A DNA stretch of 39,965 nt from Burkholderiaceae bacterium (GTDB lineage: Bacteria > Pseudomonadota > Gammaproteobacteria > Burkholderiales > Burkholderiaceae_C): contig JAEUOY010000041.1 in NCBI GenBank assembly GCA_016790515.1, forward strand, positions 1-39,965, written 5' to 3'. This document shows, piece after piece, positions 14,187 to 36,272 of the stretch (positions are counted from its first letter, which is position 1; each line of letters opens with the position of its first letter). Made by a program: the position numbers and the translations under genes. A model generated the notes under the pieces. The model was given only the letters and a program-made list of their open reading frames with translations, was not told where the DNA came from and ran no database searches.

Positions 14187-15121
14187 ACCGCAGCCGCCTG
14201 CTGCCGCACCTGGTCGAGCAGCCGCTGCACCTCGTCGACGTTGACGCGCGCGATGTCGTCCTGGTACTTGAGCAGCAGGCCGAGCGTGCTCTGCACGATC
14301 TCGGGGTCGAGCTGGATCGCGTCGAGCTCGCGCAGCGCGCGCGCCCACTCGATGGTCTCCGCCACGCCGGGCAGCTTGTAGAGGTCGAGCGTGCGCAGCC
14401 GCTGCACGAAGGCGACGATCTCACCGGCCAGCCGCTGGCCGGCCCCGGGCACGCGCCGACGCAGGATCTCGGCCTCGCGCGCCGCGTCCGGGAAACCCAC
14501 CCAGTGGTAGAGGCAGCGGCGCTTCACAGCGTCGTGGATCTCGCGTGTGCGGTTGCTCGTGAGCACGACGATGGGCGGGTGCAGCGCGCGCACGGGGCCG
14601 AGCTCGGGAATGGTGATCTGCCACTCCGACAGCACCTCGAGCAGGAAGGCCTCGAAGGGCTCGTCGGCGCGGTCGAGCTCGTCGATCAGCAGCACCGGCG
14701 CGACCGGGTTGGCCGGGTCGATCGCCTGCAGCAAGGCCCGCTTGGTGAGGAAGCGCTCACTGAACAGCTCGGCGGCGAGGGCCTCGCGGCCCTGCTTCGC
14801 ACCGGCGCCGGTGGCCTCGGCGAGGCGGATCTCCATCATCTGCCGGCCGTAGTTCCACTCGTAGGCGGCGCCCGACAGGTCCAGCCCCTCGTAGCACTGC
14901 AGCCGGATCAGCGGCCGGCCCAGCATCGCGCTGAGCGTGCGCGCGATCTCGGTCTTGCCGGTGCCGGGCTCGCCCTCCAGGAACAGCGGGCGCTGCAGCT
15001 TCAGCGCCAGGTAGACGCAGGTGGCCAGCCGGCGGTCGGCGATGTAGTCCAGCGTCGCCAGGCGGGCCAGGGTGTCGTCGATGCTGGTGGGCAGGGCTTG
15101 ATCGGACACGGGAGGCTCCAA
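14183..15121 (-). CDS. coxD: CoxD-type MoxR-family AAA+ ATPase
   Basis: This is a MoxR-type AAA+ ATPase, a chaperone-like factor that with CoxE helps build the active site of CO-dehydrogenase-like enzymes. The protein is up to 312 residues. Walker A is GEPGTGKTE near residue 53, Walker B VLLIDELDRAD near 145, sensor 1 VLTSNRTRE near 185, and the MoxR feature LEVLSEWQITIPE lies between. The ATG at 15121 or the in-frame GTG at 15109 (VSDQALPTS) could be the start. A strong hairpin with a T-run lies between coxM and this gene. Overlap with coxE implies coupled translation. Confidence 0.92.
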   Translation of the reverse strand: MEPPVSDQALPTSIDDTLARLATLDYIADRRLATCVYLALKLQRPLFLEGEPGTGKTEIARTLSAMLGRPLIRLQCYEGLDLSGAAYEWNYGRQMMEIRLAEATGAGAKQGREALAAELFSERFLTKRALLQAIDPANPVAPVLLIDELDRADEPFEAFLLEVLSEWQITIPELGPVRALHPPIVVLTSNRTREIHDAVKRRCLYHWVGFPDAAREAEILRRRVPGAGQRLAGEIVAFVQRLRTLDLYKLPGVAETIEWARALRELDAIQLDPEIVQSTLGLLLKYQDDIARVNVDEVQRLLDQVRQQAAAV

Positions 15122-15124
15122 AAG

Positions 15125-15151
15125 AAACGCCGCACCCGGTGCGGCGTTTCC
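15125..15151 (-). terminator. Hairpin terminator or attenuator between coxM and coxD
   Basis: A perfect 13-bp stem, GAAACGCCGCACC and its complement, with a one-base centre, lies 19 bases after the coxM stop on the minus strand. It is followed directly by TTTT, as in intrinsic terminators. It should stop or reduce transcription from coxM into coxD-coxE-coxG, and overlaps the start region of coxD. Confidence 0.75.
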
Positions 15152-15169
15152 CGGGGTCGAGGGAAGGCT

Positions 15170-15964
15170 TCAGCCGACGGCGCGGCCCGCCAGCACCGGG
15201 ATCAGCGCGGCGCGGTACTCGGCCGAGCCGTGCAGGTCGCTGTTCAGCCCGTCGGCACTGACCGTGGCGCCGGCCAGCGCGGCGGCCGACCAGTTGGCCG
15301 CCAGCCTGGCTTCCAGTTCCTTGGCGCGGAACACGCCCGGCCCGGCGCCGGTGACCGCCACGCGAACGCCCTGCGGGCCCTTGCTGACGAACACGCCGAC
15401 GATCGAGAAACGCGACGCCGGCTGCTTGAACTTCTGCCAGCCGGCTTTCTCGGGCACCGGGAAGCTGACCGCAGTGATCACCTCGCCCTCGGCCAGCGCG
15501 GTCTCGAACATGCCCTTGAAGAAATCGTCGGCGGCGATGTTGCGGCTGCCTGTTCCCGATTGGGTGTGCACCGTGGCGCCCAGCCCCAGCACCGCTGCGG
15601 GATAGCAGGCGGCCGGGTCGTTGTTGGCCAGGCTGCCGCCGATCGTGCCTCGGTTTCGCACCTGGCGGTCGCCGATCTTGCCGGCCAGGTCGGCCAGCGC
15701 GGGGATGGCCTTCTGGACCTCGGCACTGGCGCCGACGGCGGCATGGGTGGTCATCGCACCGATCCTGACGACGCCGCCGCTGACGGTGATGCCCCTCAGC
15801 TCGGCGATCGCCCCCAGGTCGACCAGCGCCTCGGGGGCGGCCAGGCCGAGCTTCATCGACGACAGCAGGGTCTGGCCACCGGCGATCAGCTTGGCGCCGT
15901 CGGCTGCGGCGGCACGGGCGGCCTCGGCCACCGAGGCGGGGTTGGCGTAGGTGAAGGCTTGCAT
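15170..15964 (-). CDS. coxM: FAD-binding medium subunit of a molybdenum hydroxylase (CoxM-like)
   Basis: This 264-residue protein is the flavoprotein subunit of xanthine-oxidase-family enzymes and passes electrons from the 2Fe-2S subunit to the quinone or other acceptor. FAD motifs are present: IAGGQTLLSSMK near residues 27-38 and TIGGSLANNDPAACYP near 111-126. The ATG at 15964 (MQAFTYANP) has an AGGAGA ribosome-binding site. No large (CoxL) or small (CoxS) subunit gene lies on either side, which is unusual because the three subunits are normally adjacent. It is divergent from the XdhC-type gene and separated from coxD by a terminator-like hairpin. Confidence 0.92.
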   Translation of the reverse strand: MQAFTYANPASVAEAARAAAADGAKLIAGGQTLLSSMKLGLAAPEALVDLGAIAELRGITVSGGVVRIGAMTTHAAVGASAEVQKAIPALADLAGKIGDRQVRNRGTIGGSLANNDPAACYPAAVLGLGATVHTQSGTGSRNIAADDFFKGMFETALAEGEVITAVSFPVPEKAGWQKFKQPASRFSIVGVFVSKGPQGVRVAVTGAGPGVFRAKELEARLAANWSAAALAGATVSADGLNSDLHGSAEYRAALIPVLAGRAVG

Positions 15965-16073
15965 GCGGGTTGTCTCCTGGCGGATCGGCGGAACGCGAGA
16001 CCTTGCTGCCGTCTCGACGCAACAGATCCGAGTGTAGGCCGACGCCGGTTCCGGTACCGGCATCCGGCCAATC

Positions 16074-16114
16074 GGGGGATGGGGGGGTGGGGGTGGCCCG
16101 AAGGGCGGGTCGGG
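16074..16114 (+). promoter_or_regulatory. G-run tract (possible G-quadruplex) in coxM/xdhC divergent spacer
   Basis: Within the 242-base spacer between coxM and the xdhC-type gene, the plus strand has six G-runs: five G at 16074, seven at 16081, five at 16089, then three each at 16103, 16107 and 16112. This satisfies the usual four-run rule for an intramolecular quadruplex. A 10-bp palindrome, CCGGTACCGG, sits at 16051-16060. No clear sigma-70 promoter was found. Confidence 0.5.
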
Positions 16115-16206
16115 CGTCCCTATGAACCCCCGGAAGTCCACTGCGCCTTATGCTTCCGGCTTTGACTGCGGCGGCAGCGGCGCGCCGCGCGCCGCGACAC
16201 ACGACC

Positions 16207-17211
16207 ATGGACAACGTCGACCTCAACGTGCTGCGCCAGATCACCCAGTGGCTGGCATCCGGCCACCGCGTGGTGCTGGGCACCATCACCCGCACCTGGG
16301 GCTCGGCGCCGCGGCCGCCGGGCTCGTCGGTGGCGATCCGCGACGACGGGCTGGTCGCCGGCAGCGTCTCGGGCGGCTGCATCGAGGACGACCTGGTCGA
16401 CAAGGCGCGCGCCGGCGCGCTGGCCACCGGCCTGCCGCAGGTGGTGCGCTACGGCATCGACGCCGACACCGCGCAGCGCTTCGGCCTGCCCTGCGGCGGG
16501 CTGATCGAGCTGGTGCTCGAACCGGTGCAGCCGCGCACCCGGCTCGATGAACTGCTGGCGCGGCTGGCGCGCGGCGAGCGGGTGCGGCGGGTGCTGACGA
16601 TCGCCAGCGGCGAGGTCGAGCTGCAGCCGGCCAACGACACCGACGAGCTCGAACTCACCGACACCACCCTCACCACCCACCACGGCCCGCGCTGGCGGCT
16701 GCTGCTGATCGGCGCCGGCCAGATGACGCAGTACCTGGCGCAGATGGCCAGCGCGCTGGACTACCAGGTGATCGTCTGCGACCCGCGCGAGGAATACGCC
16801 ACCGGCTTCGAGGTGCCCGGCGCGACGCTGCTGCGAACGATGCCCGACGACTGCGTGGTCGAGCTGAAGCCCGATGGCCACACCGCGATCATCGCGCTGA
16901 CCCACGACCCGAAGATGGACGACCTGGCGCTGATGGAGGCGGTGGCCAGCGAGGCCTTCTACATCGGCGCGATCGGCTCGCGGCTGAACCAGGCCAAGCG
17001 CAAGGCGCGGCTGAAGGAGCACTTCGGCATCGGCGACGAGCAGCTGGCGCGCATCCACGGCCCGGTGGGCATCAAGAACGGCGCGCGCACGCCGCCCGAG
17101 ATCGCGATCAGCATCCTCGCCGAGCTGACCGCGGTGCGCTACGGCTTGCGCATTCCCGAGCCGCTGGTGGTCAGGGCGCAGGCGGCGGTGGCGGCGGGCT
17201 GCAGCACCTGA
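16207..17211 (+). CDS. XdhC/CoxF-family molybdenum cofactor protein
   Basis: XdhC/CoxF proteins bind molybdenum cofactor and help sulfurate and insert it into xanthine-dehydrogenase or CO-dehydrogenase-type enzymes. The 334-residue protein has the N-terminal XdhC/CoxI domain, with RTWGSAPRPPGSS near residue 31 and VSGGCIEDDL near 57, and the motif GLPCGG near 96. The C-terminal part is a Rossmann-like XdhC_C domain starting at LLLIGAGQM. The ATG at 16207 (MDNVDLNVLR) fits the family, while the open frame reaches back to 16150. It is divergent from coxM, and points at a Mo hydroxylase made elsewhere or lost here. Its stop faces the binding-protein gene across only 30 bases. Confidence 0.9.
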   Translation: MDNVDLNVLRQITQWLASGHRVVLGTITRTWGSAPRPPGSSVAIRDDGLVAGSVSGGCIEDDLVDKARAGALATGLPQVVRYGIDADTAQRFGLPCGGLIELVLEPVQPRTRLDELLARLARGERVRRVLTIASGEVELQPANDTDELELTDTTLTTHHGPRWRLLLIGAGQMTQYLAQMASALDYQVIVCDPREEYATGFEVPGATLLRTMPDDCVVELKPDGHTAIIALTHDPKMDDLALMEAVASEAFYIGAIGSRLNQAKRKARLKEHFGIGDEQLARIHGPVGIKNGARTPPEIAISILAELTAVRYGLRIPEPLVVRAQAAVAAGCST

Positions 17212-17241: not shown

Positions 17242-18267
17242 TCACTGCGCGATGGTCTCGGCGCCGATCAGCTCGGCGTAGCCCATCATCGACAGCGGCG
17301 GCGGCAGCTTCAGCTCGCGTGCGGCCGGCATGCGGATCTGGTAGCTGAAGCGCTTGAGCGCCTCGACCGGCAGCGACGAGGCTGGTTGCTTGCCGAACAG
17401 GATGCGCTCGGCCTTGTGCGCGGTGAACTGGCCGACGTTGTAGTAACGGCTGACCAGGCCCGACAGCGCGCCGGCCTGCATCAGCTGCTCGGTCGACGCA
17501 AAGGTCGGCAGCCCCACGGCCATCGCCGCGGGAATGATGATGCCTTCGGCCAGCGTGCCCAGGAAGCTGTCGGGCGGCAGGTACAGCCACTGCGCCCCGG
17601 CGTCCTTGAGTTCGCGCACCAGGTCGGCGGCGCCTTCGGCGCTGGGCTTGCGCTGGGCATCGAGCCGGAACGTGCGCTCGACCGTGTGGAAACCGCGCTC
17701 CTTGCCCAGCTTGCGGATCTCGTCGAGCACCACCACCGAGTTGCGCTCGGTCGGCGTGTACAGCACGCCCAGCGTGTCGAACGGCCGATAGGTGGCGATC
17801 GCGCGGATCTGCGCGTCGGTCGGCACCACGTGGGTGACGCCGGTGATGTTGCGCTTGTGGTTGGCCAGGTCGGGCACGATCTTGGCCTGCACCGGCGCGG
17901 CCACCAGCGTGAACACCGTCGGGATGTCGGTGATGTGCTGGCCGCGCACGACGCCGTCGAACGGCCCGACCACCCCCAGCGTGACCGAGGTGCCCCAGGT
18001 GTAGATCAGGTCGGGCTTGGCGCTGCGGATCTCGTCCAGGATCGCCGGCATCCGGGTCGCGTCGCGGTTGATGTCGCGGTAGGTGATCTCCACCGGCAGC
18101 TTGCGCGAGGTGAAGTACTCCTCGAAGCCCTTCTCCACGTCGGTCATGCCGCGAAAGGTGACCGCGTGGATGCGCAAGGGCTTGTCGGCACGGGCGGCGT
18201 GGCCCAGCACCGGCAGGCTGGCGGCGGCGGCGGCCAGCAATTGCCGGCGGTTGAGGGTCGGGTTCAT
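17242..18267 (-). CDS. Periplasmic substrate-binding protein, ABC_sub_bind family, Tat-type signal
   Basis: This 341-residue protein belongs to the ABC_sub_bind (TrpX-like) family of periplasmic binding proteins. The N-terminus MNPTLNRRQLLAAAAASLPV with later HAARA resembles a twin-arginine signal peptide (NRRQLL, hydrophobic run, AxA cleavage site). The body has IYTWGTSVTLGVVGPFDG, NITGVTHVVPTD and LPTFASTEQLMQAGALSGL, typical of the family. No ABC permease or ATPase gene lies nearby, so it is likely a ligand sensor partner rather than a transporter part. It is the last of three minus-strand genes following the MFS-sensor fusion after 44 bases. The ligand is unknown. Confidence 0.85.
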   Translation of the reverse strand: MNPTLNRRQLLAAAAASLPVLGHAARADKPLRIHAVTFRGMTDVEKGFEEYFTSRKLPVEITYRDINRDATRMPAILDEIRSAKPDLIYTWGTSVTLGVVGPFDGVVRGQHITDIPTVFTLVAAPVQAKIVPDLANHKRNITGVTHVVPTDAQIRAIATYRPFDTLGVLYTPTERNSVVVLDEIRKLGKERGFHTVERTFRLDAQRKPSAEGAADLVRELKDAGAQWLYLPPDSFLGTLAEGIIIPAAMAVGLPTFASTEQLMQAGALSGLVSRYYNVGQFTAHKAERILFGKQPASSLPVEALKRFSYQIRMPAARELKLPPPLSMMGYAELIGAETIAQ

Positions 18268-18311
18268 CGTGGTCGTGCTTTCGATTGGAGTGGGGGACGC
18301 TGCAGAGGTGA

Positions 18312-20411
18312 TCAGGCCGGGGCCAGCGCCGGCTGTGTGCTGCGCCGCGTGGCCAGCAGGAAGGCGATGCCGCAGACCGCCACCAGGCCGCCGAGGGCGA
18401 CGAAGCTCAGGCGGTAGTCCAGCCAGCGCAGCAGCACGGCGGCCAGCAGCGGGCCCATCGCGTTGCCCAGCCGCTCGAGCAGGCGGTACACGCCGTAGAC
18501 CGTGCCCTCGCCCAGGCGCTCGATCTCGGGGCCGCAGTGCTCGCTGACCAGCGCGCTCTGTGCCGAGATCGACATCGACTGGCCCAGGCCGACCAGCACC
18601 ACCGCCAGGAACATCCAGCCGACCCCGGCGCCGGCCAGCATCAGCACGCCGCCCAGGCCCGAGACCACCAGGCCACCGCCGACCAGCCAGTGCATGCGCT
18701 CGGTGCTGGTGGCCCAGCCGGCGGTCAGCGGGGCCAGCACGACCATCGCCACCGCGTAGGTCATCAGCACGCGGCCGGCCATCGACTGGGTGTCGCCGAT
18801 CGCGCTGACGTACAGCGGCATCAGGTAGAAGCACAGGCCGGTCAGCAGGATCTTCGCCGGCATCGCCGCCAGCCCGGTGACGGCCATGAAGCGGCCGTTG
18901 CCGACCAGCGCGACGATCTCCGACAGCCGCGGCAGGCGCGCCGCGACGCGGCCGCCCCCCGCGCTGGCGGCGGGCAGCTGGCGGATCGCCAGGATCGAAC
19001 CGGCCGCCAGCAGCGCGGCGATCGCGAAGGTCGGGCGCACGCCGATGTTGTCGGCCAGGATGCCGCCGATCGACGGGCCGCACACGGTGGCGGCCATGAT
19101 CGCGCCAACGAACAGCGCGAAGCTGCGCGCCCGGGTGGCCGGTGTCGCATGGTCGAGCACGAAGGCCTGCCCGGCGACGAAGACCATCGCATAGCCCACC
19201 GCGCACAGCGAGCGCCACAGCAGCAGGTCCAGCACGTTGTGGGCCAGCGCGGTGGCCACGAAACCGACGGCGGCCACCGCGGCGCCGGTCAGCATCGTGC
19301 GGCGGTGGCCGACACGCTCGCACCACACGCCGATGATCGGCTGGCCCAGTGCGACGATGAACATGAACAGCGCGATCGGCAGCCCGACCACCAGCTCGGG
19401 CGTCAGCCAGGGCAGCGGCACCTGCAGTTCCTTGACATAGCCGGGCAGGAACGAACGGGTCAGCTCCTCGGCCAGGATGAACACGAACAGCGGCGTTCGC
19501 ACCTTGGCCAGCTCGGTCTCGTTGCCGCGGGCGGCCGCGGGCTCGGCGCCGAAGCGGAAGCGCTGGGCCAGGCGCACCAGCCCCGCCTGGGCGGCGGTCT
19601 GGCCCGGCGGGCGCTCGTGGGCCGGCAGGCGGCGGCCGTTCTCGACCTCGCGGGCCAGGACCTCGAAATGGGCGTTGACGCGGGCCAGCGCTGCCTCCAG
19701 GTGGCCGACCAGGCCGCCGAAGGCCAGGTCGCCGCGCGGCCGGCTGCGCGCGGTGAAGTCACCGCCGGCGCCACGGTCGAAGACATCGCCCAGCGCGCGC
19801 AGCCCGGCGTCGAGCTTGGCGCCGGCCATGTAGTGCAGCAGCTCCAGCGTGAAGAACAGCGACACCACCAGCACCACCAGCACGTCGTACAGCATGTCCA
19901 GCACGATCGCGTCGACGAAGCTCACGTCGATGCCGATGTGCAGGATGCCCAACGGCCGGGTGCCGGCGGCGATCGGCAGCGACACCACGTACTGGTTGCC
20001 CACCCGCACCGCCGGCGACACCGCGTCGGGCGTCTTCAGCAGCGCCAGCACCGCGGGGCTGCGCAGGTAGGACTCGGCGCCGGAGGGCGCGCTGAAGCGC
20101 TGGTGCAGTGCCTTGCCCTGGGCATCGGTCAGCGCGATGTAGGAGACCTCGGGCATCTCCTTGCGCACCTCGTCGAAGCGCTGCTCGACCCCGGTGAGTT
20201 CGCCGAACGCCACGCCGGCCGCCTCGGCCCTGATCACCAGCGCGCGCACCGACGCACCGGCGCTGGCCACCTTCTTGGCCATCTCGGGTGCCAGCGCGGC
20301 CTCGAAGGCGCGGTGCGACATCGCCGCATTGGCCACCAGCGCCAGCAGCACCACCAGCGTCAGCACGCCGGCCAGGCGCAGGTAGACCCCGCGCAGGTAT
20401 CCGTTGTTCAT
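18312..20411 (-). CDS. Periplasmic sensor plus HAMP-like segment fused to an MFS transporter
   Basis: This 699-residue protein combines two modules. Residues 1-220 look like a chemoreceptor-type input: a helix at about 8-30, a periplasmic single-cache-like domain at 31-165 (SYIALTDAQGKALHQRF, then GNQYVVSLPIAAGTRPLGILHIGID), a helix at about 168-195, and a HAMP-like segment after it. Residues 305-690 form a 12-helix major facilitator with the loop-2/3 motif GVWCERVGHRRTM. The start is the ATG at 20411, which overlaps the stop of the upstream sensor gene (TGATG) and has a GAGGGGC purine stretch upstream. The frame is open back to 21206 and that part is a shadow. The fusion suggests transport controlled by a periplasmic signal, or a transporter acting as a sensor. 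Its substrate is unknown. Confidence 0.85.
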   Translation of the reverse strand: MNNGYLRGVYLRLAGVLTLVVLLALVANAAMSHRAFEAALAPEMAKKVASAGASVRALVIRAEAAGVAFGELTGVEQRFDEVRKEMPEVSYIALTDAQGKALHQRFSAPSGAESYLRSPAVLALLKTPDAVSPAVRVGNQYVVSLPIAAGTRPLGILHIGIDVSFVDAIVLDMLYDVLVVLVVSLFFTLELLHYMAGAKLDAGLRALGDVFDRGAGGDFTARSRPRGDLAFGGLVGHLEAALARVNAHFEVLAREVENGRRLPAHERPPGQTAAQAGLVRLAQRFRFGAEPAAARGNETELAKVRTPLFVFILAEELTRSFLPGYVKELQVPLPWLTPELVVGLPIALFMFIVALGQPIIGVWCERVGHRRTMLTGAAVAAVGFVATALAHNVLDLLLWRSLCAVGYAMVFVAGQAFVLDHATPATRARSFALFVGAIMAATVCGPSIGGILADNIGVRPTFAIAALLAAGSILAIRQLPAASAGGGRVAARLPRLSEIVALVGNGRFMAVTGLAAMPAKILLTGLCFYLMPLYVSAIGDTQSMAGRVLMTYAVAMVVLAPLTAGWATSTERMHWLVGGGLVVSGLGGVLMLAGAGVGWMFLAVVLVGLGQSMSISAQSALVSEHCGPEIERLGEGTVYGVYRLLERLGNAMGPLLAAVLLRWLDYRLSFVALGGLVAVCGIAFLLATRRSTQPALAPA

Positions 20412-21181
20412 CACTTTGCCCCTCGGTGCTGTGCACGCAGATCGGTGACCTGGCTGTCGGCCAGCCGCACCGTCTCGACGAACTGGCGCAGCGCCGGGCC
20501 GAACGGCCCGCGCGCGGTGCTGGCCAGGCTGCCGGTGACGCCGCCGACCCGCAGCGCCTGCTCGGCCGCGCTGACGTCGCGGTCGAGCCGGCTCATCACC
20601 CGCAGCAGCGCCAGCGACGACAGGCCGGCCGACAGCACGAACATCAGCGCCGTGCCCAGCGCCAGCTGGCGGCCGACGTTGTGGATCGAGTCCTGCACGC
20701 GCTCGTTCGAGTAACGCAGCACCGCGTGGCCGACGGTGAGGCCGAAGTTGTTCTCGATCGACATCCCGGCGGCCGATTCGTCGTCGTGCTCGGTGAACCA
20801 GCCCTCCTCGCTGCTGGCCGCCGCCTTGCGCGCCGTCTCGATCCAGTGCACGGGCACCGGGCGCGACATGCGCAGGCTGTCGGTGCTGTAGAGCATGCGG
20901 CCCTCGGGGTCGAAGATGTCGATGCTCAGGATCAGGTCGTCGGTGGCGCGCTCGCGCTGCAGGGTGCCCGGCAGCGTGACGATGTCGGCGAACTGCAGCC
21001 CCAGCGACAGCGAGGACTGGATGCTGTTCTCGATCGAGCGGCCGGTCACCAGCAGCCGCTCCTTGACGATGCTGGTGGCGGTGCTGCGGTACTTGAAATA
21101 GTTCAGCAGGCCGGCCATGCCGACCGCGAAACCGCAGACGATCACCGCCACGCCGACCATGCGGCGCTTCGTCGATTCCAT
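20411..21181 (-). CDS. Two-helix periplasmic sensor protein without output domain
   Basis: This 256-residue protein has a helix at about residues 8-28, a periplasmic cache-like domain (LILSIDIFDPEGRMLYSTDSLRM, then WFTEHDDESAAGMSIENNFGLTVG) and a second helix near 185-205 (LGTALMFVLSAGLSSLALL), followed by a short cytoplasmic tail without kinase, GGDEF or methyl-accepting domains. The start at 21181 has a good AGGAG site (GAGGAGTGAATCCCATG). The stop overlaps the next gene's start by one base, so the two membrane proteins are translationally coupled and probably form a complex. The function is not known. Confidence 0.8.
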   Translation of the reverse strand: MESTKRRMVGVAVIVCGFAVGMAGLLNYFKYRSTATSIVKERLLVTGRSIENSIQSSLSLGLQFADIVTLPGTLQRERATDDLILSIDIFDPEGRMLYSTDSLRMSRPVPVHWIETARKAAASSEEGWFTEHDDESAAGMSIENNFGLTVGHAVLRYSNERVQDSIHNVGRQLALGTALMFVLSAGLSSLALLRVMSRLDRDVSAAEQALRVGGVTGSLASTARGPFGPALRQFVETVRLADSQVTDLRAQHRGAK

Positions 21182-21440
21182 GGGATTCACTCCTCGAACC
21201 CGGCAACAGGCCCGGTCCTGGGACTTGTTATCGGGCGCCATCGGCGCAGCTTGAGCCCCGGCCGGACGTTCGACCGCGTCGGCAGCGGCCAAAAAGTTCC
21301 TCAACTGGGTCCGCTGCGTTGCCGATAGCCCGATGGAACGCCCGGGCTGCCGCCAGGCGACGCAACGACGGGGCAGCCGACACCTGGACGCGCCCGCCGG
21401 CATCGGCGGCACGACCCGCCACAAGGCCGAAAGGAGAGGA

Positions 21441-21521
21441 ATGAACGAGTCGACTGTCTGCACGACCGCTGGGCGTGCAAGTTCGCTGCTGACGACCGTC
21501 GCCGGAGGGCCGGCGCGATGA
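21441..21521 (+). CDS. Leader ORF of 26 codons coupled to the hydrolase gene
   Basis: An ATG at 21441 is preceded immediately by AAGGAGAGGA, the best ribosome-binding site in this region. It opens a 26-codon frame (MNESTVCTTAGRASSLLTTV plus six) whose TGA overlaps the ATG of the alpha/beta hydrolase as ATGA. It could be a leader peptide that couples translation, or simply the true ribosome entry point for the operon. The rest of the 336-base divergent spacer (21182-21517) shows no other gene. Confidence 0.5.
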   Translation: MNESTVCTTAGRASSLLTTVAGGPAR

Positions 21522-22669
21522 AGTCGCCCCTGGCCGTCGTCCCGCGCGACGACTTCGCCGGCGACACCGTGCCCGGCGAGCTGGTCGACATCGCCTGGGA
21601 ACCGCCGCTGCGCGGCCCGCGCCGGCCGCTGACCACCTGGCGCGACTACATGGCCCAGGCCAGCCGCATCGTCGGCCGTTTCCACGGCCAGTTCGCGCTG
21701 CAGCGCTTCGACTACGAGCACCCGGTGCGGCTGCAGTCGGGCACGCCGCTGCGCATGAAGAAGCCCTACACGGTCAGCGTGGCCTACACCGAATGGGGCC
21801 CGGCCGACGCGCCGGTGCTGGTGTGCTGCGGCGGCGTGGCCAACGTGGCGATGCGCTTCAGCTACCTGGCCTCCGACCTGAGTGACCGCTTTCGCGTGAT
21901 CTGCATGGACTGGCTGGGCCGCGGCCGCTCGGGCTGGCTGGCGGCCGAGGGTGACTATTCGCTGGCCACCTACGCCGAACAGCTGCGCCAGATGATCTTG
22001 CACCTGGGCCGCAGGCCGGTCACGGTGCTCGGCTCGTCGATGGGCGGCAGCGCCGCGATCGAGCTGCTGGCGCGCCACCCGAAGATGATCGACCGGCTGA
22101 TCCTGAACGACGTCGGCCCGCACATCCCGGCGCGGCGCCGCAAGCGCCGTGCCGACACGATCGCGCGGCACTACGTGTTCCGCGAACCGTCGGACCTGCT
22201 GCGCAAGATCGGCGCGTCGCAGAAGAACGACGGCCCGGTCGGCGACGACATCCGCTTCAACCTGACCTTCCACCAGACCCGCTGGTGCGACGAGGAGGGC
22301 GGGCGCATCTACCGCCACGACGTTCGCGCGATGCAGGCCTACCGCCGCGACGCGCAGCGCAGCCTGCTGCAGTGGGCGCAATGGCAGCATGTGAACTGCC
22401 CGATGCTGCTGATCCACGGCCTGCAGTCCGATGCGCTGTTCGAGCCGACGATCCGCCGCATGATGCGCGGCAAGCCGGTGTCGCTGATGCGCATCCCCGA
22501 CACCGGGCACGCCCCGCTGCTGGCCGACCGCAACCACATCTGGTTCATCCGCCAGTGGCTGACCGGCGAGCAATGCCCCGACGGCGAATGGTCGGTGCTG
22601 CATGCGCCGGCGCGCGACCCGTATCCCGGCAACCCGATCCCGTTCGCACCGGCCAGCGCGCTGCGCTGA
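21518..22669 (+). CDS. Alpha/beta hydrolase
   Basis: This cytoplasmic protein of 383 residues is an alpha/beta hydrolase. The nucleophile elbow GSSMGG puts the serine at 174, the likely acid is Asp305 (LQSDALFEP) and the histidine His331 (DTGHAPLL). The oxyanion region is likely CCGGVANV near residues 105-112, in place of the common HGxxG. An N-terminal extension of about 70 residues precedes the core. No signal peptide is seen. It opens the operon with the phosphatase-like protein, hybrid kinase and GGDEF-EAL regulator, and its start overlaps the 26-codon leader. The substrate (ester, lactone or other) is unknown; the context suggests it processes the signal sensed by the system. Confidence 0.85.
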   Translation: MKSPLAVVPRDDFAGDTVPGELVDIAWEPPLRGPRRPLTTWRDYMAQASRIVGRFHGQFALQRFDYEHPVRLQSGTPLRMKKPYTVSVAYTEWGPADAPVLVCCGGVANVAMRFSYLASDLSDRFRVICMDWLGRGRSGWLAAEGDYSLATYAEQLRQMILHLGRRPVTVLGSSMGGSAAIELLARHPKMIDRLILNDVGPHIPARRRKRRADTIARHYVFREPSDLLRKIGASQKNDGPVGDDIRFNLTFHQTRWCDEEGGRIYRHDVRAMQAYRRDAQRSLLQWAQWQHVNCPMLLIHGLQSDALFEPTIRRMMRGKPVSLMRIPDTGHAPLLADRNHIWFIRQWLTGEQCPDGEWSVLHAPARDPYPGNPIPFAPASALR

Positions 22670-22685
22670 TGCGAGCCCCGCGAAG

Positions 22686-23272
22686 ATGTTCGAGCCCTTT
22701 CCCCGCGGCACCGTGCTGCATTTCGTCCGTCACGGTGCCACTGCGGCCAACCTGGTCGGGCTGCGCTGCGGCGGCGACCTCGACCTGCCGCTGACCGACA
22801 TCGGCCGCCGCCAGGCCCATAGCGTGGGCCAGGCGCTGCGCGCGGCGAACCCGCCGATCGTGCGGATCGTCACCAGCAACCTGCAGCGCACCCGCGACAC
22901 CGCGGCGATCATCGCGCTGGAGCTGGGCGCCGCCGCCGCGCCGCCGGAGCTGGTGATCGAGCCCGGTTTCGCCGAGCGCCATCTCGGCGACTGGAACCTG
23001 GCGCCGACCGCCGACACCGAGATCGCGCTGCGATCGGGCCTGGCGCCGCCCGGCGGCGAGGCCGCCGACGTGTTCCACGCCCGCATCGTCGCCGCGCTCG
23101 AGCGCATCCGCCCGCTGCTGGCGCAGCCGCTGCTGCTGGTGGGCAGCAAGGGCGTGGCCCGGGTGCTGGGCGAGTTGAGCGGCCTGCCCGGCCGGCTGGC
23201 GCTGGACAACGGCGTGCTGTGCCGTTTCGAGCTGGGACCGCGTTTCGAAGAACTGGCTGACCTGGAGACCTC

Positions 23273-23276
<4 letters not shown>
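22686..23276 (+). CDS. Histidine-phosphatase-family protein with altered second histidine
   Basis: This 196-residue protein has the phosphoglycerate-mutase-like fold: FVRHGAT with His16, [22 protein letters not shown] and the acidic [11 protein letters not shown]. In active family members a second catalytic histidine lies in a late VSHGG-like segment; here the equivalent reads [10 protein letters not shown] with Lys155. The protein may therefore be inactive or bind phospho-ligands only. The ATG at 22686 follows the hydrolase stop by 16 bases, while the open frame begins earlier at 22602. Its stop overlaps the kinase start (ATGA), so its amount is tied to the kinase. A role such as a phospho-histidine regulator of the relay is speculation. 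Confidence 0.8.
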
Positions 23277-26278
<3,002 letters not shown>

Positions 26279-26327
26279 GCCCCGCACGAGCGCCCGAAGG
26301 GGCGAATTCCCTCCTCGAGGGACAGGC

Positions 26328-26414
26328 GCGCAGCGCCAAGGGTGCGCCAGTGAGCACGCCGGGCCGCGCCCAGGCGCCAATCCCGGAGCACGCAATACGG
26401 AGGGTTGTCCCATG
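26328..26414 (+). repeat. Dispersed repeat copy A, carrying RBS and start codon
   Basis: The 87 bases ending at the ATG of the GGDEF-EAL regulator match the 87 bases ending at the GTG of tupC (minus strand, 37913-37999). Over the last 65 bases I count 53 identical without gaps. Shared blocks include CGCCGGGCC, AATCCCGGAGC and CGGAGGGT. The last block acts as the ribosome-binding site, 10 bases before the start. Just upstream are hairpins TCCCTC-CTC-GAGGGA (26308-26322) and GGCGC-GCA-GCGCC (26325-26337). Confidence 0.75.
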
Positions 26415-28655
26415 AGTGCCCGCCCAGCCTTCGCCCTCGGCGACGCGGCGCAGCCGGCCCCCGTTGCGGAGTCGGTGCTGACGCGCGCCCGCATCCTGGT
26501 GGTCGACGACGACGCCGGCGCCCGGCGCCTGACCCGCGCGACGCTGAACAAGTCCGGCTTCACGGTGATCGAGGCCGCCAACGGCCAGCTGGCGCTGGAC
26601 GCCATGATGCAGGCGCTGCCCGACCTGGTGCTGATGGACGTCAGCATGCCGGTGATGGACGGCTTCACCGCCTGCGAGACGCTGCGCCGGCTGCCCGGGG
26701 GCAGCCGCATCCCGGTGGCGATGATCACCGGCCTGGACGACACGCCGTCGATCGACCGCGCCTTCGAGGTCGGCGCCACCGACTTCATCACCAAGCCGAT
26801 CAACTGGTCGGTGCTGCCGCACCGCGTCCGTTACATGCTGCGTGCCAGCAGCGCGATCCACAACCTGGAACAGAACGAGCGCCGGTTGTCCAACGCCCAG
26901 CGCATCGGCGAGATGGGCGACTGGGAATGGCGGGTCGACCAGGGCTTCATCGCGCCGTCGGCGCAGGCCTGGCGCCTGTTCGGCCACGCCGAGGCGGACG
27001 TCGCGGCGGCGGCCGCCCCGCCGCAGTTCTTCGCCACGGTGCATCCCGACGACCGCGACCGCCTGCATCGGGCCTGCGAACAGGCCGTGGCCAACGGCGA
27101 GGGCTTCGCGATCGACCACCGGATCCTGCTCGCCGACGGCACGGTGCGCCACATGCAGCAGCAGGTGGAGGTGATCGAACGCGATCCGGTGGGCCGGGCG
27201 CTGCGCCTGGCCGGCGCGGTGCACGACATCACCCGGCGCAAGGACGCCGAGGAGCAGATCCGCCGGCTGGCCTACTACGATCCGCTGACCGATCTGCCCA
27301 ACCGGCTGCTGTTCACCGAACAGCTGGGCCTGGCGCTGGCCCAGGCCGAACGCCACCAGCGCCAGCTGGCGGTGATGTTCGTCGACCTGGACAACTTCAA
27401 GCGCGTCAACGACACGCTGGGCCACAAGGCCGGCGACGAGCTGCTGCGGGTGACCAGCGCCCGGCTGGCAGCCGTGCTGCGCCGCAACGACGCGCTGGCG
27501 CGCAGCAGCGAGCCGCATGGCCACAGCATCGCCCGGCTGGGCGGCGACGAGTTCATCGTCCTGCTGACCGACCTGCAGCGCAGCGAGGACGCCGCCAACG
27601 TCGCGCAGCGGTTGGTCGACACGCTGGCCGAGCCGGTGTTCGTGCAGGGCACCGAGATCTACGTCGGCGGCAGCCTGGGCGTGGCGATGTACCCGGCCGA
27701 CGGCAGCGACATCGACACGCTGATGATGAATGCCGACACCGCGATGTACCGCGCCAAGGAGGCCGGGCGCAGCGGCTTCCAGCTCTACGACCGCTCGATG
27801 AACGCGCGCGCGCTGGACCGGCTGCACATGGAGACCCAGCTGCGCCGCGCGCTCGAGCGCAACGAGTTCGTGCTGCACTACCAGCCGCGCATCGACGTGC
27901 TGTCGGGCCGCATCGTCGGCGCCGAGGCGCTGATCCGCTGGCAGCACCCGGAGCGCGGCCTGCTGATGCCGGGCGACTTCATCACGCTGGTGGAGGACGC
28001 CGGGCTGGTGATCCCGATCGGCGAATGGGTCATCGGCGAGGCCTGCCGGCAGAACGCGGCCTGGTGCGCCGACGGCCTGCCGCTGGTGCCGGTGGCGGTG
28101 AACCTGGCCTCGACCCATCTGCGCGAGCGCGGCCTGCCGTCGTTGGTGGCCCGGACCCTGGCCCGGCACCAGCTGCCGGCCAGCGGCCTGGAGATCGAGG
28201 TCACCGAATCGATCCTGCTGGCAGAGCCCGAACTGAGCATCCGCATCGCGCAGGAGCTGGCGACGATGGGGGTGCAGCTGTCGATCGACGACTTCGGCAC
28301 CGGCTACTCGTCGATGAGCTACCTGAAGCGGTTGCCGATCTCGGCGCTGAAGATCGACCGTTCGTTCGTGCGCGACCTCGAGACCGACCCCGACGACGAG
28401 GCCATCATCAGCGCGATCATCGCGCTGGCGCACAGCCTGAAGCTCAAGGTGGTGGCCGAAGGCGTCGAGACCCAGGCCCAGCTGGCCTTCCTGCAGGCCC
28501 ACCACTGCGACGAGTACCAGGGCTTCCTGACCAGCCGCGCGATCACCCCCGATGCCTTCGCGCGGCTGCATCGGCAGGCCGGTGCCGCCGGCGCCCCGGG
28601 CAGCGCAGCGGCATCGGGTACAACCGGGCCATGCCCGACGACGACCAGATCCTGA
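26412..28655 (+). CDS. REC-PAS-GGDEF-EAL response regulator
   Basis: This 747-residue cytoplasmic protein is a two-component response regulator for cyclic-di-GMP. The receiver (residues about 30-145) has VVDDDAG and the acceptor Asp76 ([11 protein letters not shown]). A PAS-like domain covers about 160-280 and ends with a typical [20 protein letters not shown] linker. The cyclase domain carries an intact GGDEF at 377-381, and I see no RxxD inhibitory site before it. The phosphodiesterase domain has EAL at 505-507. Both activities look preserved. Copy A of the dispersed repeat supplies the ribosome-binding site. It is the probable target of the preceding hybrid kinase. Its end overlaps the next small gene. 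Confidence 0.95.
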
Positions 28656-28975
28656 TCCCGCCCTCGTTCGAGGCCGTCTACCGCGATGCGCGCGGCCGGC
28701 TGGGCGTGCCGCGCGACGAATTCCGTGCGCGGTATGAACTGTGCGAGGACATGGCGCAGATGCTGGTCGAGCGCTGCCAGGCGGTGCACCACGACCAGGG
28801 CGTCGACGAGGGCGAGATCCTGGCGCGCACGCTGGCCGGGCTGGCCAGCGCCGGATCGGGATTCAGCGCCGCCGAGGCGAGCTGGGTGGTGACGCGGCTG
28901 GCCGAGTTGCTGGGCTGGTCCTGGGCAGGACTGGCGGACGCGATCGCCATCGGGTGCGGCCGGCCCCGCCACTAA
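28631..28975 (+). CDS. Small conserved hypothetical protein, 114 residues
   Basis: This soluble, mostly helical protein has 114 residues from the ATG at 28631, which lies 25 bases inside the end of the GGDEF-EAL gene. Segments such as [31 protein letters not shown] and ASWVVTRLAELLGWSW recall small proteobacterial proteins sometimes labelled as chaperone-type ATPases, but no nucleotide-binding motif is visible. I cannot give it a function. Its TAA overlaps head-on with the TAG of the minus-strand endonuclease gene (28972-28975). Confidence 0.7.
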   Translation: MPDDDQILIPPSFEAVYRDARGRLGVPRDEFRARYELCEDMAQMLVERCQAVHHDQGVDEGEILARTLAGLASAGSGFSAAEASWVVTRLAELLGWSWAGLADAIAIGCGRPRH

Positions 28976-29805
28976 CCCGGCAGCTCCGGGTCATCTGCCT
29001 CGAGGGGATCGGCTTCGCCACCGGACCACTCGAAATCGGCGGCATTGCGCTCGAGGTAGGCGCGGTGCACCTCGACAATGAACTCGGCGTAGCTCATCGC
29101 GCGACGCGGCGGCTCGCGGCGCCCGGCCGGGCCGAAGAATGCGCCTTCGCGCGACGGTCGACCGTTCTTCGGCGGCGCGGTGCGGATGTCGAACAGCGCG
29201 AAGTCGCTGCCGTCCGGCTCGTAGAGCGCGACGAAGAGACGCTCGAACCGATCGAGTTCGTCGTGCGGCGAGGGACGCGAGGCGTAGGGCCTCAGGTGGC
29301 GGACGAAGCTGCCGAAGGACGAAGGCGTGCGCTCCGAGCGGGCGTCGGTGCAACTGTCGAACGGCAGGAACAGAACACCCACCATCACGGCATAGGGCTG
29401 CCGCTTGTGGTACCCGGCGGCCTCGATGCGCAGTTCCTCCTCGTTTCGCTTCATGTTGTGCGTGTAGCGTTTGCCGCCCGTCGTCTCACGGAGGTGGACG
29501 GACTTCAGCGAAATGCCGAGCGCCAGTCCGAGCTGCGGTGTCGAGAAGTTGACGTCGAGCTGCTTGTGGCCACGAACTCCAACGGCAGTTCGCTTCGAGC
29601 TCGCTTCGATGCCCTTCAGATGTCGCGACAAGTCGCGAGCGAGAGCCGTGGCCATCGCGTCGGCGAAACGCACCGCATAGGCGTTCTTGACCGATTGCGG
29701 CGCGGTTGGATCCGGCCGGGGACGGGCAGACTCGAGCACCCGACGCAGCACCGACTCACCTTCTGGTTCGGTGATCGCAGGCTTGGCGGAACCTGTGTCT
29801 TTCAT
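28972..29805 (-). CDS. Probable restriction endonuclease of a Dcm/Vsr-type cassette
   Basis: I do not recognise the family. The 277-residue protein follows the Vsr gene by 10 bases in a methyltransferase-Vsr operon, where the restriction enzyme is expected. It contains KQLDVNFSTPQLGLALGISLKSVH near residues 82-105, an Asp followed later by a SLK element, which fits the loose PD-(D/E)XK nuclease pattern. Further on lies LFVALYEPDGSDFALFDIRTAP. The start is the ATG at 29805 (MKDTGSAKPA); the frame is open to 30003 in the shadow of vsr. Base composition here looks less GC-rich than in neighbours, fitting transfer. The recognition sequence is unknown. Confidence 0.65.
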   Translation of the reverse strand: MKDTGSAKPAITEPEGESVLRRVLESARPRPDPTAPQSVKNAYAVRFADAMATALARDLSRHLKGIEASSKRTAVGVRGHKQLDVNFSTPQLGLALGISLKSVHLRETTGGKRYTHNMKRNEEELRIEAAGYHKRQPYAVMVGVLFLPFDSCTDARSERTPSSFGSFVRHLRPYASRPSPHDELDRFERLFVALYEPDGSDFALFDIRTAPPKNGRPSREGAFFGPAGRREPPRRAMSYAEFIVEVHRAYLERNAADFEWSGGEADPLEADDPELPG

Positions 29806-29815
29806 GGCCAAGAGG

Positions 29816-30226
29816 TCAGCGGCGCAGCAGTCGCTGGGCGAGCCGCCGCAAGACCTGCAAATCTTCGGTCTGGCACTCCCAGATCGTCTCGACGAACCAG
29901 CCGAGTCGCTCGAGTTCCGTCTTCTTGCGCTGGTCCCGGACCTTGTTGGCCGCAATCTTCGCCTGCCAGAACTCGGCATTCGTCTTGGCCCGCACACGGC
30001 CATGGTCGCAGTCGTGTCCGTGCCAGAAGCAGCCGTGCACGAAGACTGCCGTCTTTCGGCGCGGGAGCACGATGTCCGGGCGCCCCGGGAGCTTTCTCGG
30101 GTGCAGGATGAAACGCAAGCCTCGAGAGTGCAGGTAGCGCCGGACAGCCAGTTCGGGCTCGGTATTGCGCTGACGGATGCGCCGCATGCGCGAGGGGCCG
30201 GTGCCTTCGGCAGCGCTCGATGCCAT
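29816..30226 (-). CDS. vsr: Very short patch repair endonuclease
   Basis: Vsr nicks DNA next to T:G mismatches formed by deamination of methylated cytosine, protecting the methyltransferase site from mutation. The 136-residue protein carries PGRPDIVLP with Asp51, the same number as the catalytic Asp of the Escherichia coli enzyme, and the zinc-site pattern HGCFWHGHDC with Cys66, His71 and Cys73. KTNAEFW and GWFVETIWEC complete the family pattern. The start at 30226 is 29 bases after the methyltransferase stop. The presence of vsr implies that the partner methylates C5 of cytosine in a site that becomes T:G on deamination. Confidence 0.93.
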   Translation of the reverse strand: MASSAAEGTGPSRMRRIRQRNTEPELAVRRYLHSRGLRFILHPRKLPGRPDIVLPRRKTAVFVHGCFWHGHDCDHGRVRAKTNAEFWQAKIAANKVRDQRKKTELERLGWFVETIWECQTEDLQVLRRLAQRLLRR

Positions 30227-30255
30227 CGTGTCTTGCCGGGCGGGCGACGGAAATC

Positions 30256-31440
30256 TCAGGCGGCCAGCAGTTCGAGTTGCCGCGAGGGCTCGCTCGCCGA
30301 CGGCGTACTGCCCACCACGGCAAGATGACGCTCGACTGCCGCGATGAAGCCCGGCTCGAAGCGCAGCTTCGCGCGGCGCGTGCGCCCGAGGAAACCCGTG
30401 GTGGCCTTCAGCGACAGCAACTGCTGGCCCTCGGTGTGCCGAAGGAAATCGGCCAGCGGCGGCGGACCGATGCCCAAGGGATCGGCGCTGATGTTCACTG
30501 CGCTGCGCTGCCTTCCGTCGAAGCGGGCGGCGCGGGGCGCCTTGCCCGCGATCGGAAACGGGGCGTCACGTCGCGAGTCGTACTTTGCAGGCTTCGCCAA
30601 GCGATCACCGACCCAACGCGCCACCGGCACGCTGACCGCGCTGCCGACCAGGCTCCAGCGCGCTGCCGGCTTGGCCACTCGCTCGGCAGGGGCCGTCCAC
30701 CCCCCCTCGAAGCCCTGGAGTCGTTCGGCGTCTTCGATGCCCGGCTTGATGATGCGGCCGTCCGGCATCAGCACGGCCGGCGGCGACGGGATGCCGATCG
30801 TGCTGCCGTTCTTCAATGTCGGCACGGCATCGACCGCCCAGCCCAGCCCGCCGAGCCCTTCGGTCCAGTAGAACCCGTGCGGCCGCCGGCCGATGGCCGT
30901 GGCCGGGCGTTCGATCGGTGCGTCGTCGGCCAGCAGCACCTCGGACGGGTCGAGCACCCGCGACGCCACCAGATAGACCCGCTCGCGGCGCTGGGCCAGG
31001 CCGAAAGACCAGCTGTCGACGACACGGTAGGCCCAGCGATAGCCGAGCTGCTCGAAGGCGTCGATGATCGCCCGCATCGCATTGCCGCCGCTGAGCTGCA
31101 GCATGAAAGGGACGTTCTCGACGACCACGGTCGGCACCCGACGATGGCGCAGCAGCCGAAACACCTCGGCGATCAGGCCGGACCGCTCGCCGTCCAGGCC
31201 GGCGGTGCGGCCCGCCTGGCTCAGGTCCTGGCAGGGGAACCCGGCGCAGACCAGATCGACGGACGACGGCAGCGAGCGCAGGCTCGTCACGTCGTGCCGA
31301 TACTCGACGCCGGGAAACCGTGCCTCCAGCACCGCACGCGAGGTATCGAGCACGTCGCAGAACAGCTCGGCATGGTGGCCGGCGCGCCCGAGCCCCAGTT
31401 CGAAGCCTCCGATGCCTGCGAAGAGTCCGGCGACATTCAT
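30256..31440 (-). CDS. DNA (cytosine-5) methyltransferase
   Basis: This 394-residue enzyme transfers a methyl group from S-adenosylmethionine to C5 of cytosine. Motif I is LFAGIGGFELGL at the N-terminus, motif IV GFPCQDLS with catalytic Cys70, motif VI VVVENV near 108, motif VIII AQRRERVYLV near 155, and motif X GSAVSVPVARWVG near 275. About 100 further residues follow motif X. The start at 31440 (MNVAGLFAGIGG) gives the usual short N-terminus; the frame is open to 31509. It leads the operon with vsr and the probable endonuclease. On the minus strand a TATGAT box at 31473-31468, 28 bases before the start, is a plausible -10 element. The target site cannot be read from sequence. Confidence 0.93.
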   Translation of the reverse strand: MNVAGLFAGIGGFELGLGRAGHHAELFCDVLDTSRAVLEARFPGVEYRHDVTSLRSLPSSVDLVCAGFPCQDLSQAGRTAGLDGERSGLIAEVFRLLRHRRVPTVVVENVPFMLQLSGGNAMRAIIDAFEQLGYRWAYRVVDSWSFGLAQRRERVYLVASRVLDPSEVLLADDAPIERPATAIGRRPHGFYWTEGLGGLGWAVDAVPTLKNGSTIGIPSPPAVLMPDGRIIKPGIEDAERLQGFEGGWTAPAERVAKPAARWSLVGSAVSVPVARWVGDRLAKPAKYDSRRDAPFPIAGKAPRAARFDGRQRSAVNISADPLGIGPPPLADFLRHTEGQQLLSLKATTGFLGRTRRAKLRFEPGFIAAVERHLAVVGSTPSASEPSRQLELLAA

Positions 31441-31577
31441 ATGGATGTCCGTACAGTTGTTCGCGGGATCATAGCCCAGCCCGGCACTCGATGCGATGCC
31501 CGCGCCCACGCTGGGCCGGCCACATCGCGGGCCGCTTCACCCGGACCCGCAGCGCGGGCTGAATCGGCCGCGCGACA

Positions 31578-33643: not shown

Positions 33644-33670
33644 GGCGCTTCTTTCGAATGTCACAAACGA

Positions 33671-33694
33671 CAAGGCGGTCCTAGAACCGCCTTG
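33671..33694 (-). terminator. Hairpin between aorB and aorC
   Basis: A perfect 9-bp inverted repeat, CAAGGCGGT and ACCGCCTTG around a six-base loop, lies in the spacer after the catalytic subunit stop. On the minus strand only a short T-rich stretch (TCGTTTG) follows, so it may be a weak terminator or an mRNA-stabilising stem that lowers aorC relative to aorB. Confidence 0.55.
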
Positions 33695-33717
33695 CGTGCT
33701 TCAGCGGCGGGCCGCGG

Positions 33718-35565: not shown

Positions 35566-35575
35566 GCTGTGCTCC

Positions 35576-36049: not shown

Positions 36050-36108
36050 GGCGTTCTTCTCCGCGGGGCTGATGGGGGTTGTGACCCCGCCCACGCGCCG
36101 TGCGTGGT

Positions 36109-36174: not shown

Positions 36175-36226
36175 AGCAGGGACATCGGCAAGGATGTTCC
36201 AGCCTGGGACGCGAGGCACCCCTGGC

Positions 36227-36243: not shown

Positions 36244-36272
36244 GGGACGGCCGTGCGCCGGCTGCCCGGCCA

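What the first reader, a model, noticed from the sequence alone, without database searches (positions are those of the whole stretch)
17242..28975. A two-operon sensory module that I cannot match to a described system
Seen: two divergent operons. Minus strand: coupled two-helix periplasmic sensor, sensor-MFS fusion, Tat-type binding protein. Plus strand: alpha/beta hydrolase, histidine-phosphatase-like protein, hybrid kinase with REC-REC-HPt, REC-PAS-GGDEF-EAL. Established: each domain is common. Inference: the binding protein and two periplasmic sensors detect a ligand, the transporter exports or imports it, the hydrolase modifies it, and the phosphorelay turns it into cyclic-di-GMP. A transporter, an enzyme and a phosphorelay in one divergent locus suggest a metabolite or signal recycling circuit.
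Basis: partly seen in the sequence, partly recalled or inferred. Interest (0 to 1): 0.8.

Follow-up and report, generated by a model that had tools for sequence, protein, structure and literature searches.

The report
Motility-linked sensor–transporter with binding protein
Bacteria related to Rubrivivax and Ideonella carry a conserved membrane unit in which an export-type transporter is built together with two outside-facing sensor domains and a free binding protein, apparently switched on with the swimming machinery; I found no description of this combination.

Summary
In detail: all seven genes are present. The real novelty is the minus-strand trio: sensor (SENS), sensor-MFS (FUS), PF04392 binding protein (SBP). 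In 80 loci analysed (of 176 relatives found; beta-, gamma-, alphaproteobacteria), SENS is directly upstream of FUS in 66, fused into it in 11, cut by a contig edge in 3; SBP is directly downstream in 70. No TrpY-type ABC permease was found there. AlphaFold predicts a natural SENS-FUS fusion with high confidence (pTM 0.89): two Cache-like modules plus a DHA1-type MFS. The second operon is a looser partner: hydrolase in 25 of 80 loci, with kinase and GGDEF-EAL in 12; elsewhere the trio sits beside other signalling genes. New: flagellar sigma-28-type promoter sites point both ways from the divergent intergenic region (9 of 15 regions, ≤2 mismatches; shuffles 0; 5 of 15 lack a site). Best reading: a transporter-sensor whose loaded binding protein docks on paired Cache domains, wired in this lineage to a phosphorelay and c-di-GMP.

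The parts
17242..18267 (-). SBP: periplasmic solute-binding protein, PF04392, divergent clade, Tat-like signal
   Evidence: Pfam; clade; RR-x-phi-phi near the N-terminus in 43 of 77 relatives
18312..20411 (-). FUS: N-terminal TM-Cache-like-TM sensor fused to a DHA1-type MFS transporter
   Evidence: Pfam; AF2 pLDDT 88.4, pTM 0.81; Foldseek MdfA, VMAT, NorA
20411..21181 (-). SENS: stand-alone TM-Cache-like-TM sensor overlapping the FUS start; fused to FUS in other genomes
21229..21254 (-). sigma-28 (FliA)-type promoter-like site toward SENS, TCAAGC-N13-CCCGATA (2 mismatches)
21301..21327 (+). sigma-28 (FliA)-type promoter-like site toward ABH, TCAACT-N14-GCCGATA (1 mismatch)
21518..22669 (+). 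ABH: alpha/beta hydrolase with Ser174, Asp305, His331
   Evidence: Pfam; these residues in at least 95% of 26 aligned rows
22686..23276 (+). HPP: histidine-phosphatase-like protein, SKG in place of the second-His HGG motif
   Evidence: Pfam
23273..26278 (+). HYB: membrane-anchored hybrid histidine kinase, PAS-HisKA-HATPase-REC-REC-HPt
   Evidence: Pfam; motifs; hydropathy
26412..28655 (+). GGEAL: REC-PAS-GGDEF-EAL response regulator for c-di-GMP
   Evidence: Pfam; motifs
28631..28975 (+). small ORF at the operon end, unassigned

Best explanation
SENS, FUS and SBP form a sensing transporter ('transceptor'). Shown by sequence: two similar periplasmic modules, one on SENS and one on FUS, belong to one unit with a DHA1-type MFS, and a distinct SBP clade goes with it. 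Inferred: ligand-loaded SBP docks on the paired Cache-like modules, couples the periplasmic ligand level to the MFS cycle (more likely export than import), and the state of the unit is passed to whatever signalling enzymes the lineage keeps beside it. In the window's lineage these are the hybrid phosphorelay HYB and the REC-PAS-GGDEF-EAL protein; both operons are probably transcribed with the flagellar class (sigma-28) and so would adjust c-di-GMP and motility. ABH would process or sense the small molecule inside the cell; HPP is probably not a conventional phosphatase.
For: Trio: SENS within 250 nt upstream in 66, fused in 11, contig edge 3; SBP within 300 nt downstream in 70, elsewhere in the locus 7, edge 2, absent 1, of 80 loci (80 of 176 kept). 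FUS and this SBP type are in the same 9 of 100 genomes, all 10 SBP places beside FUS. A natural SENS-FUS fusion is predicted at pLDDT 92.3, pTM 0.89. 39 trio SBPs form one side of a branch (93/95; 92% of bootstrap trees), the ABC-linked ones another. The window genome's own PF04392-type permease hits none of the 80 loci. Four SENS-profile hits outside the trio are Cache-domain proteins next to an SBP gene; three of them read by Pfam carry histidine kinase domains, so SBP plus Cache already serves as a sensing pair. Neighbours vary: ABH+HYB+GGEAL 12, ABH with Ser/Thr kinase 10, SpoIIE 21, GNAT-like 31 of 80. Sigma-28-type sites both ways in 9 of 15 regions, control maximum 0; the motif also precedes flagellin, FliD and CheY genes in G016 and cheY-cheZ in the window genome.
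Against: No interaction, transport, ligand or c-di-GMP data. ABH+HYB+GGEAL is not seen in 68 of 80 loci (some contigs too short), so coupling to this kinase is lineage-specific and may be only co-regulation. HYB has PAS domains of its own. ABH occurs without FUS in 3 of 7 genomes. Lack of an ABC permease is not special to the trio: of 30 PF04392 loci checked with 1.5-kb flanks only 7, the highest-scoring ones and including the query's own locus, had it. Five of 15 divergent regions (L023, L025, L030, L032, L038) have no sigma-28 site at 2 mismatches, the promoter pattern was first noticed in these same regions, and of the 5 exact sites in the window genome only one other precedes a chemotaxis gene. 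L091 has no SBP in the stretch held. Cache identity and export direction rest on indirect evidence.
Confidence: 0.5

Rival explanations
1. The trio is a binding-protein-dependent MFS importer: SBP delivers a ligand to the MFS, the Cache-like domains serve as docking platforms, and the signalling genes next door are incidental.
For: SBPs normally serve uptake (PMC9602780, passages); SBP, SENS and FUS stay together while the signalling neighbours change.
Against: MFS nearest to DHA1 exporters by fold and to drug-efflux models by profile, all far below the profiles' cut-offs; conserved G445-P446..G449-G450 resembles the antiporter motif C (recalled); two sensor modules are more than docking needs.
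Confidence: 0.2
2. The MFS no longer transports; the unit is a pure receptor like UhpC, with SBP as ligand binder.
For: UhpC precedent (PMC8871633, passages); the MFS is combined with sensor domains and lies beside signalling enzymes.
Against: Charged residues of the MFS part are nearly invariant in 59 sequences (R400 59, K520 57, R643 58, E646 57, R647 58), as expected of a working transporter; a related MFS without SENS or SBP nearby sits beside ABH and HPP relatives in Azospirillum ramasamyi.
Confidence: 0.15
3. Two unrelated operons merely share a divergent flagellar-class promoter region; the trio and the kinase do not talk to each other.
For: ABH+HYB+GGEAL not seen in 68 of 80 trio loci (some contigs too short); ABH without FUS in 3 of 7 genomes.
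Against: The 4 of 100 genomes with the orthologous kinase are the same 4 that have a close FUS; 12 loci keep the divergent arrangement; ABH stays near the trio in 25 loci although the kinase type changes.
Confidence: 0.15

Closest known systems
UhpC-UhpB-UhpA (MFS sensor with kinase)
   Same: An MFS protein informs a phosphorelay (PMC8871633, passages)
   Different: UhpC has no Cache domains or SBP partner (recalled); the regulator here is GGDEF-EAL, not DNA-binding
CbrA / SLC5-STAC histidine kinases
   Same: Transporter fold coupled to signalling
   Different: Transporter fused to the kinase itself and of the SLC5 kind (PMC8871633, passages)
SBP-stimulated receptors such as BctC-BctE (PMC9602780, passages) or LuxPQ (recalled)
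   Same: SBP loads a periplasmic receptor domain
   Different: Here the receptor-like domains are on an MFS transporter and a stand-alone partner, not on the kinase
TRAP and TTT transporters
   Same: SBP with a secondary transporter (PMC5812351, passages)
   Different: MFS instead of their membrane subunits; PF04392 SBP
TrpXYZ-type ABC importer with PF04392 SBP
   Same: Same Pfam family of SBP
   Different: No homologue of the TrpY-type permease in the 80 loci; SBP in a separate clade

Membership tests
ABC importer of the TrpXYZ kind | TrpX-type SBP | tested here: not met
   PF04392 met (78 bits, cut-off 25.9), but TrpX equivalog model only 86 of 390 bits
ABC importer of the TrpXYZ kind | Cognate permease encoded alongside | tested here: not met
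   own-genome permease hits 0 of 80 trio loci; found in 7 of 30 other PF04392 loci, the seven highest-scoring, one being the query's own
TRAP/TTT SBP-dependent secondary transporter | Their own membrane subunits | tested here: not met
   membrane partner is MFS_1
DHA1-type MFS transporter | MFS_1 domain with DHA1-like fold | tested here: met
DHA1-type MFS transporter | Drug/proton antiport activity | not testable with these tools
   needs a transport assay
UhpABC-type MFS sensor system | Output through a DNA-binding response regulator | tested here: not met
   the regulator in the locus is REC-PAS-GGDEF-EAL
SBP-dependent sensor kinase (LuxPQ-like) | SBP-docking periplasmic domain on the kinase | tested here: not met
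   HYB shows only a short hydrophobic anchor before its PAS domains
Cache sensor family | Cache fold between two TM helices | tested here: inconclusive
   secondary structure of both models fits; dCache_1 in 22 and sCache_3_2 in 17 of 76 SENS members at E<=1, none for the window member
Flagellar class III (sigma-28) regulon | FliA-type promoter-like site upstream | tested here: met
   window 1 mismatch toward ABH, 2 toward SENS; both directions in 9 of 15 regions at <=2 mismatches; motif also before flagellin, FliD, CheY; consensus recalled
Flagellar class III (sigma-28) regulon | FliA-dependent transcription | not testable with these tools
   needs a fliA mutant
Histidine phosphatase branch 1, catalytic | RHG motif plus second catalytic His | tested here: not met
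   window has RHG; SKG replaces HGG in 21 of 21 aligned rows, compared by eye with CobC

The most novel reading that the evidence does not exclude
The trio is a new family of binding-protein-coupled transporter built on the MFS fold: the SBP docks on a pair of Cache modules that are part of the transporter, making one machine that transports and reports the same molecule, with plug-in outputs (phosphorelay/c-di-GMP, Ser/Thr kinase, cyclase, SpoIIE partner switch) swapped between lineages.
Probability: 0.35. Interest if true: 0.88.

Novelty: new variant of a known kind. Interest (0 to 1): 0.7.

Why it matters
SBP-dependent secondary transport is described for TRAP and TTT (PMC5812351, PMC9602780, passages read), and transport-coupled sensing for a few systems such as CbrA and UhpC (PMC8871633, passages). 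A widespread unit that joins an SBP, two sensor modules and an export-type MFS, with changing signalling partners and, in one lineage, flagellar-class promoter sites, would give a tractable model for how cells measure what they move across the membrane and turn it into c-di-GMP and motility decisions.

Tried and rejected
Ordinary ABC tryptophan importer: rejected. Chance neighbourhood of SENS, FUS and SBP: rejected. RsbQ-like receptor idea for ABH: RsbQ is not named among the 10 PDB matches at E<=1e-8; left open. SixA-like phosphohistidine phosphatase for HPP: only a weak SixA match (E=2e-4, 21 of 74.5 bits) and an altered motif. SENS profile against PDB sequences: best CitA sensor, E=0.098, not significant. 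Small ORF after GGEAL: no hit. Literature: ten searches gave no paper on an SBP-Cache-MFS unit among the listings I saw; the library is open-access only. Of papers I saw passages of PMC9602780, PMC8871633 and PMC5812351; the rest only as listings with the start of the abstract.
Full report
What is there. Minus strand: SENS (21181-20411), FUS (20411-18312), SBP (18267-17242); SENS and FUS overlap as TGATG. Plus strand: ABH, HPP, HYB, GGEAL and a small ORF. The searched motifs of HYB (His, two REC Asp sites, HPt His, ATP-binding boxes) and GGEAL (GGDEF, EAL and partners) are present, and ABH has S174, D305 and H331 in at least 95% of 26 aligned rows. HPP of the window has RHG, but SKG stands where CobC has HGG, in 21 of 21 aligned rows, compared by eye, so normal phosphatase chemistry is doubtful.

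The trio is a real unit. In 100 genomes (own one counted) FUS was found in 9 at E<=1e-20 and this SBP type in the same 9 at E<=1e-30; all 10 SBP places lie beside FUS. A scan of genome contigs gave 176 relatives of FUS by two MFS peptide patterns, of which the best 80 loci were kept and analysed. Of these 80, SENS is within 250 nt upstream in 66, fused to the N-terminus of FUS in 11, and unobservable at a contig edge in 3. SBP is within 300 nt downstream in 70, elsewhere in the locus in 7 (L044, L069, L077, L081, L082, L083, L097; in L097 my gene caller split FUS), at an edge in 2, and absent from the stretch held in 1, L091. By record titles the hosts are beta-, gamma- and alphaproteobacteria. 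A profile of SENS rang in 14 of 398 Pseudomonadota genomes: in 10 beside or inside a FUS-like gene, in 4 as part of another protein.

It is not the ABC importer of its SBP family. The window genome has one canonical PF04392 system with permease and ATPase. That permease matches none of the 80 trio loci at E<=1e-3. As a check, among 30 other PF04392 loci with 1.5-kb flanks it was found in 7, the seven highest-scoring, one of them the query's own locus; 23 others lacked it, so lack of a permease alone does not mark the trio. In a tree of 66 SBPs (39 of the 78 trio SBPs at hand, 7 ABC-linked, 6 orphan, 14 near sensor-like genes) the trio SBPs are one side of a branch (93/95; 92% of bootstrap trees) and the ABC-linked ones another (100/99). 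The labels come from the neighbourhood, and several 'sensor' rows are very long branches.

Structure. FUS is predicted with pLDDT 88.4 and pTM 0.81, and a natural fusion (L048, Azonexus) with pLDDT 92.3 and pTM 0.89: long helix, Cache-like strands, helix, the same again, then the MFS. I had no coordinates. The MFS is nearest to MdfA, VMAT and NorA (window model; L048 model). The Cache identity rests on secondary structure and weak profile hits (22 of 76 members to dCache_1, 17 to sCache_3_2; none for the window protein). Nearly invariant in 59 aligned sequences are E190 of the sensor part (59), R400 (59), K520 (57), R643 (58), E646 (57), R647 (58). With the conserved G445-P446..G449-G450, which resembles antiporter motif C (recalled), I read this as a working, probably exporting, MFS.

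SBP plus Cache as a portable sensing pair. Four places hit by the SENS profile (L164, L165, L166, L168) are long proteins next to an SBP gene. Pfam, run on three of these proteins (L164, L165, L168), found sCache_3_2, HAMP and histidine kinase domains; the SBP is Pfam-confirmed for L164 and L166, and by tblastn only for L165 and L168. SBPs are known to stimulate kinases, chemoreceptors, c-di-GMP enzymes and Ser/Thr kinases (PMC9602780, passages). In the trio the same kind of pair is attached to a transporter.

How far the second operon belongs. ABH is within the fetched locus in 25 of 80, HPP in 20, ABH with HYB and GGEAL in 12. Several contigs are too short to show it (for example L022, L025, L034). 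Ten further ABH loci carry a Ser/Thr kinase (three such kinases from trio loci were read by Pfam: L031, L050, L059, all with dCache and HAMP), and L039 a dCache-HAMP cyclase. SpoIIE (21 loci by blast, 22 by clustering), STAS (11), RsbW-like (9) and GNAT-like (31) genes mark other loci and do not overlap the ABH loci. The GNAT label is weak: Pfam matched two of four members tested. An orthologous HYB (66% identity or more) is in 4 of 100 genomes (G000, G012, G016, partial in G020), exactly those with a close FUS (68% or more); hits at 43-46% in G059, G074 and G081 are other kinases. ABH is in 7 of 100: 4 with FUS and 3 (G003, G015, G018) without, next to a kinase of the same kind (Pfam on one of the three, the others by similar sequence); G020 has FUS at a contig end and no ABH was found. 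An Azospirillum ramasamyi plasmid has MFS, ABH, HPP and a chemoreceptor in a row with no SBP or SENS hit.

Flagellar promoter sites (new). Shared k-mers in the divergent regions led to the pattern TCAAGT-N13/14-GCCGA(T/A)A, which matches the FliA-type consensus (recalled). In 15 regions with the SENS-ABH divergent arrangement (window, G012, 13 loci) it points, at up to 1 mismatch, to ABH in 9 and to SENS in 8, both in 7; at up to 2 mismatches 10, 9 and both in 9, including the window. First-order shuffles gave at most 1, 1 and 0, but the pattern was noticed in these same regions. Five regions (L023, L025, L030, L032, L038) have no site at 2 mismatches and L024 only one toward ABH. Upstream of the trio in 72 usable loci of the 80, 7 have at most 1 mismatch and 13 at most 2 (control 0 and mean 0.83, maximum 2); the extra ones include five Rhodocyclaceae with TAAAGA-N13-GCCGAAA. 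In G000, G012 and G016 together the exact pattern occurs 38 times against 2 for the backwards control. Downstream genes in G016 include flagellin and FliD (Pfam), a CheY-like receiver and an HD-domain protein with DUF3391; in the window genome cheY-cheZ and an Hpt-receiver pair; others are unrelated, for example subtilases, an M48 peptidase and DUF1631 proteins. The likely consequence is expression together with flagella, which fits a c-di-GMP output.

Mechanism and limits. I infer that ligand-loaded SBP docks on the SENS-FUS sensor pair and couples ligand level to the MFS and to the local signalling enzymes. Shown: gene unit, natural fusion, distinct SBP clade, promoter-like sites. Inferred: docking, export, coupling to HYB, effects on c-di-GMP and motility, roles of ABH and HPP. 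Relatives also lie beside T6SS genes (8 Azospirillum loci; Vibrio plasmid L104; a ClpB-like gene by L162) and, in Massilia and others, beside a C39-peptidase ABC exporter (Pfam on L041; others by clustering). This hints at a role around export of bioactive products, but is only association.

Noticed in passing
window 28972-31509 (-): Vsr endonuclease (29816-30226) and C5 cytosine methyltransferase (30256-31509) beside an unassigned 343-aa ORF (28972-30003) that may be the matching restriction enzyme.
   Followed up: partly
window 32240-37106 (-): Aldehyde ferredoxin oxidoreductase with a pyridine-nucleotide oxidoreductase and a TupA-like tungstate-binding protein (below the TupA cut-off): a likely tungsten enzyme cluster.
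   Followed up: partly
window 12888-17211: CoxE, an AAA ATPase (MoxR-like by reading), an FAD-binding molybdopterin dehydrogenase subunit and XdhC; relatives of all four lie next to SBP also in G020.
   Followed up: partly
L063 14030-16280 and other Azospirillum loci: A second SENS followed by a shortened FUS-like protein (471 aa in L063, no Pfam match, sensor plus a few hydrophobic stretches) between the trio and the SpoIIE gene.
   Followed up: partly
L061, L063, L066, L070, L074, L080, L086, L099; L104; L162: Trio beside type VI secretion genes and, at L162, a ClpB-like gene.
   Followed up: partly
L041, L042, L052, L057, L062, L076, L098: Trio near peptidase-type ABC exporters with HlyD- and TolC-like genes (named by reading), some with radical SAM enzymes.
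   Followed up: partly
L103 6740-11830: Azospirillum ramasamyi plasmid: MFS without SENS or SBP hit, alpha/beta hydrolase, histidine phosphatase family protein and chemoreceptor in a row.
   Followed up: no
window 22686-23276 and 20 relatives: SKG replaces the usual HGG of histidine phosphatases in 21 of 21 aligned rows, suggesting a pseudo-enzyme or changed chemistry.
   Followed up: partly
L123 5344-8591 (G015), L124 (G003), L125 (G018): ABH relative directly after a Ser/Thr kinase (dCache-HAMP in L123) in genomes without a FUS match.
   Followed up: partly
L132, L154 (G082:C8): Five neighbouring PF04392 SBP genes; no ABC permease hit in the two short loci read.
   Followed up: no
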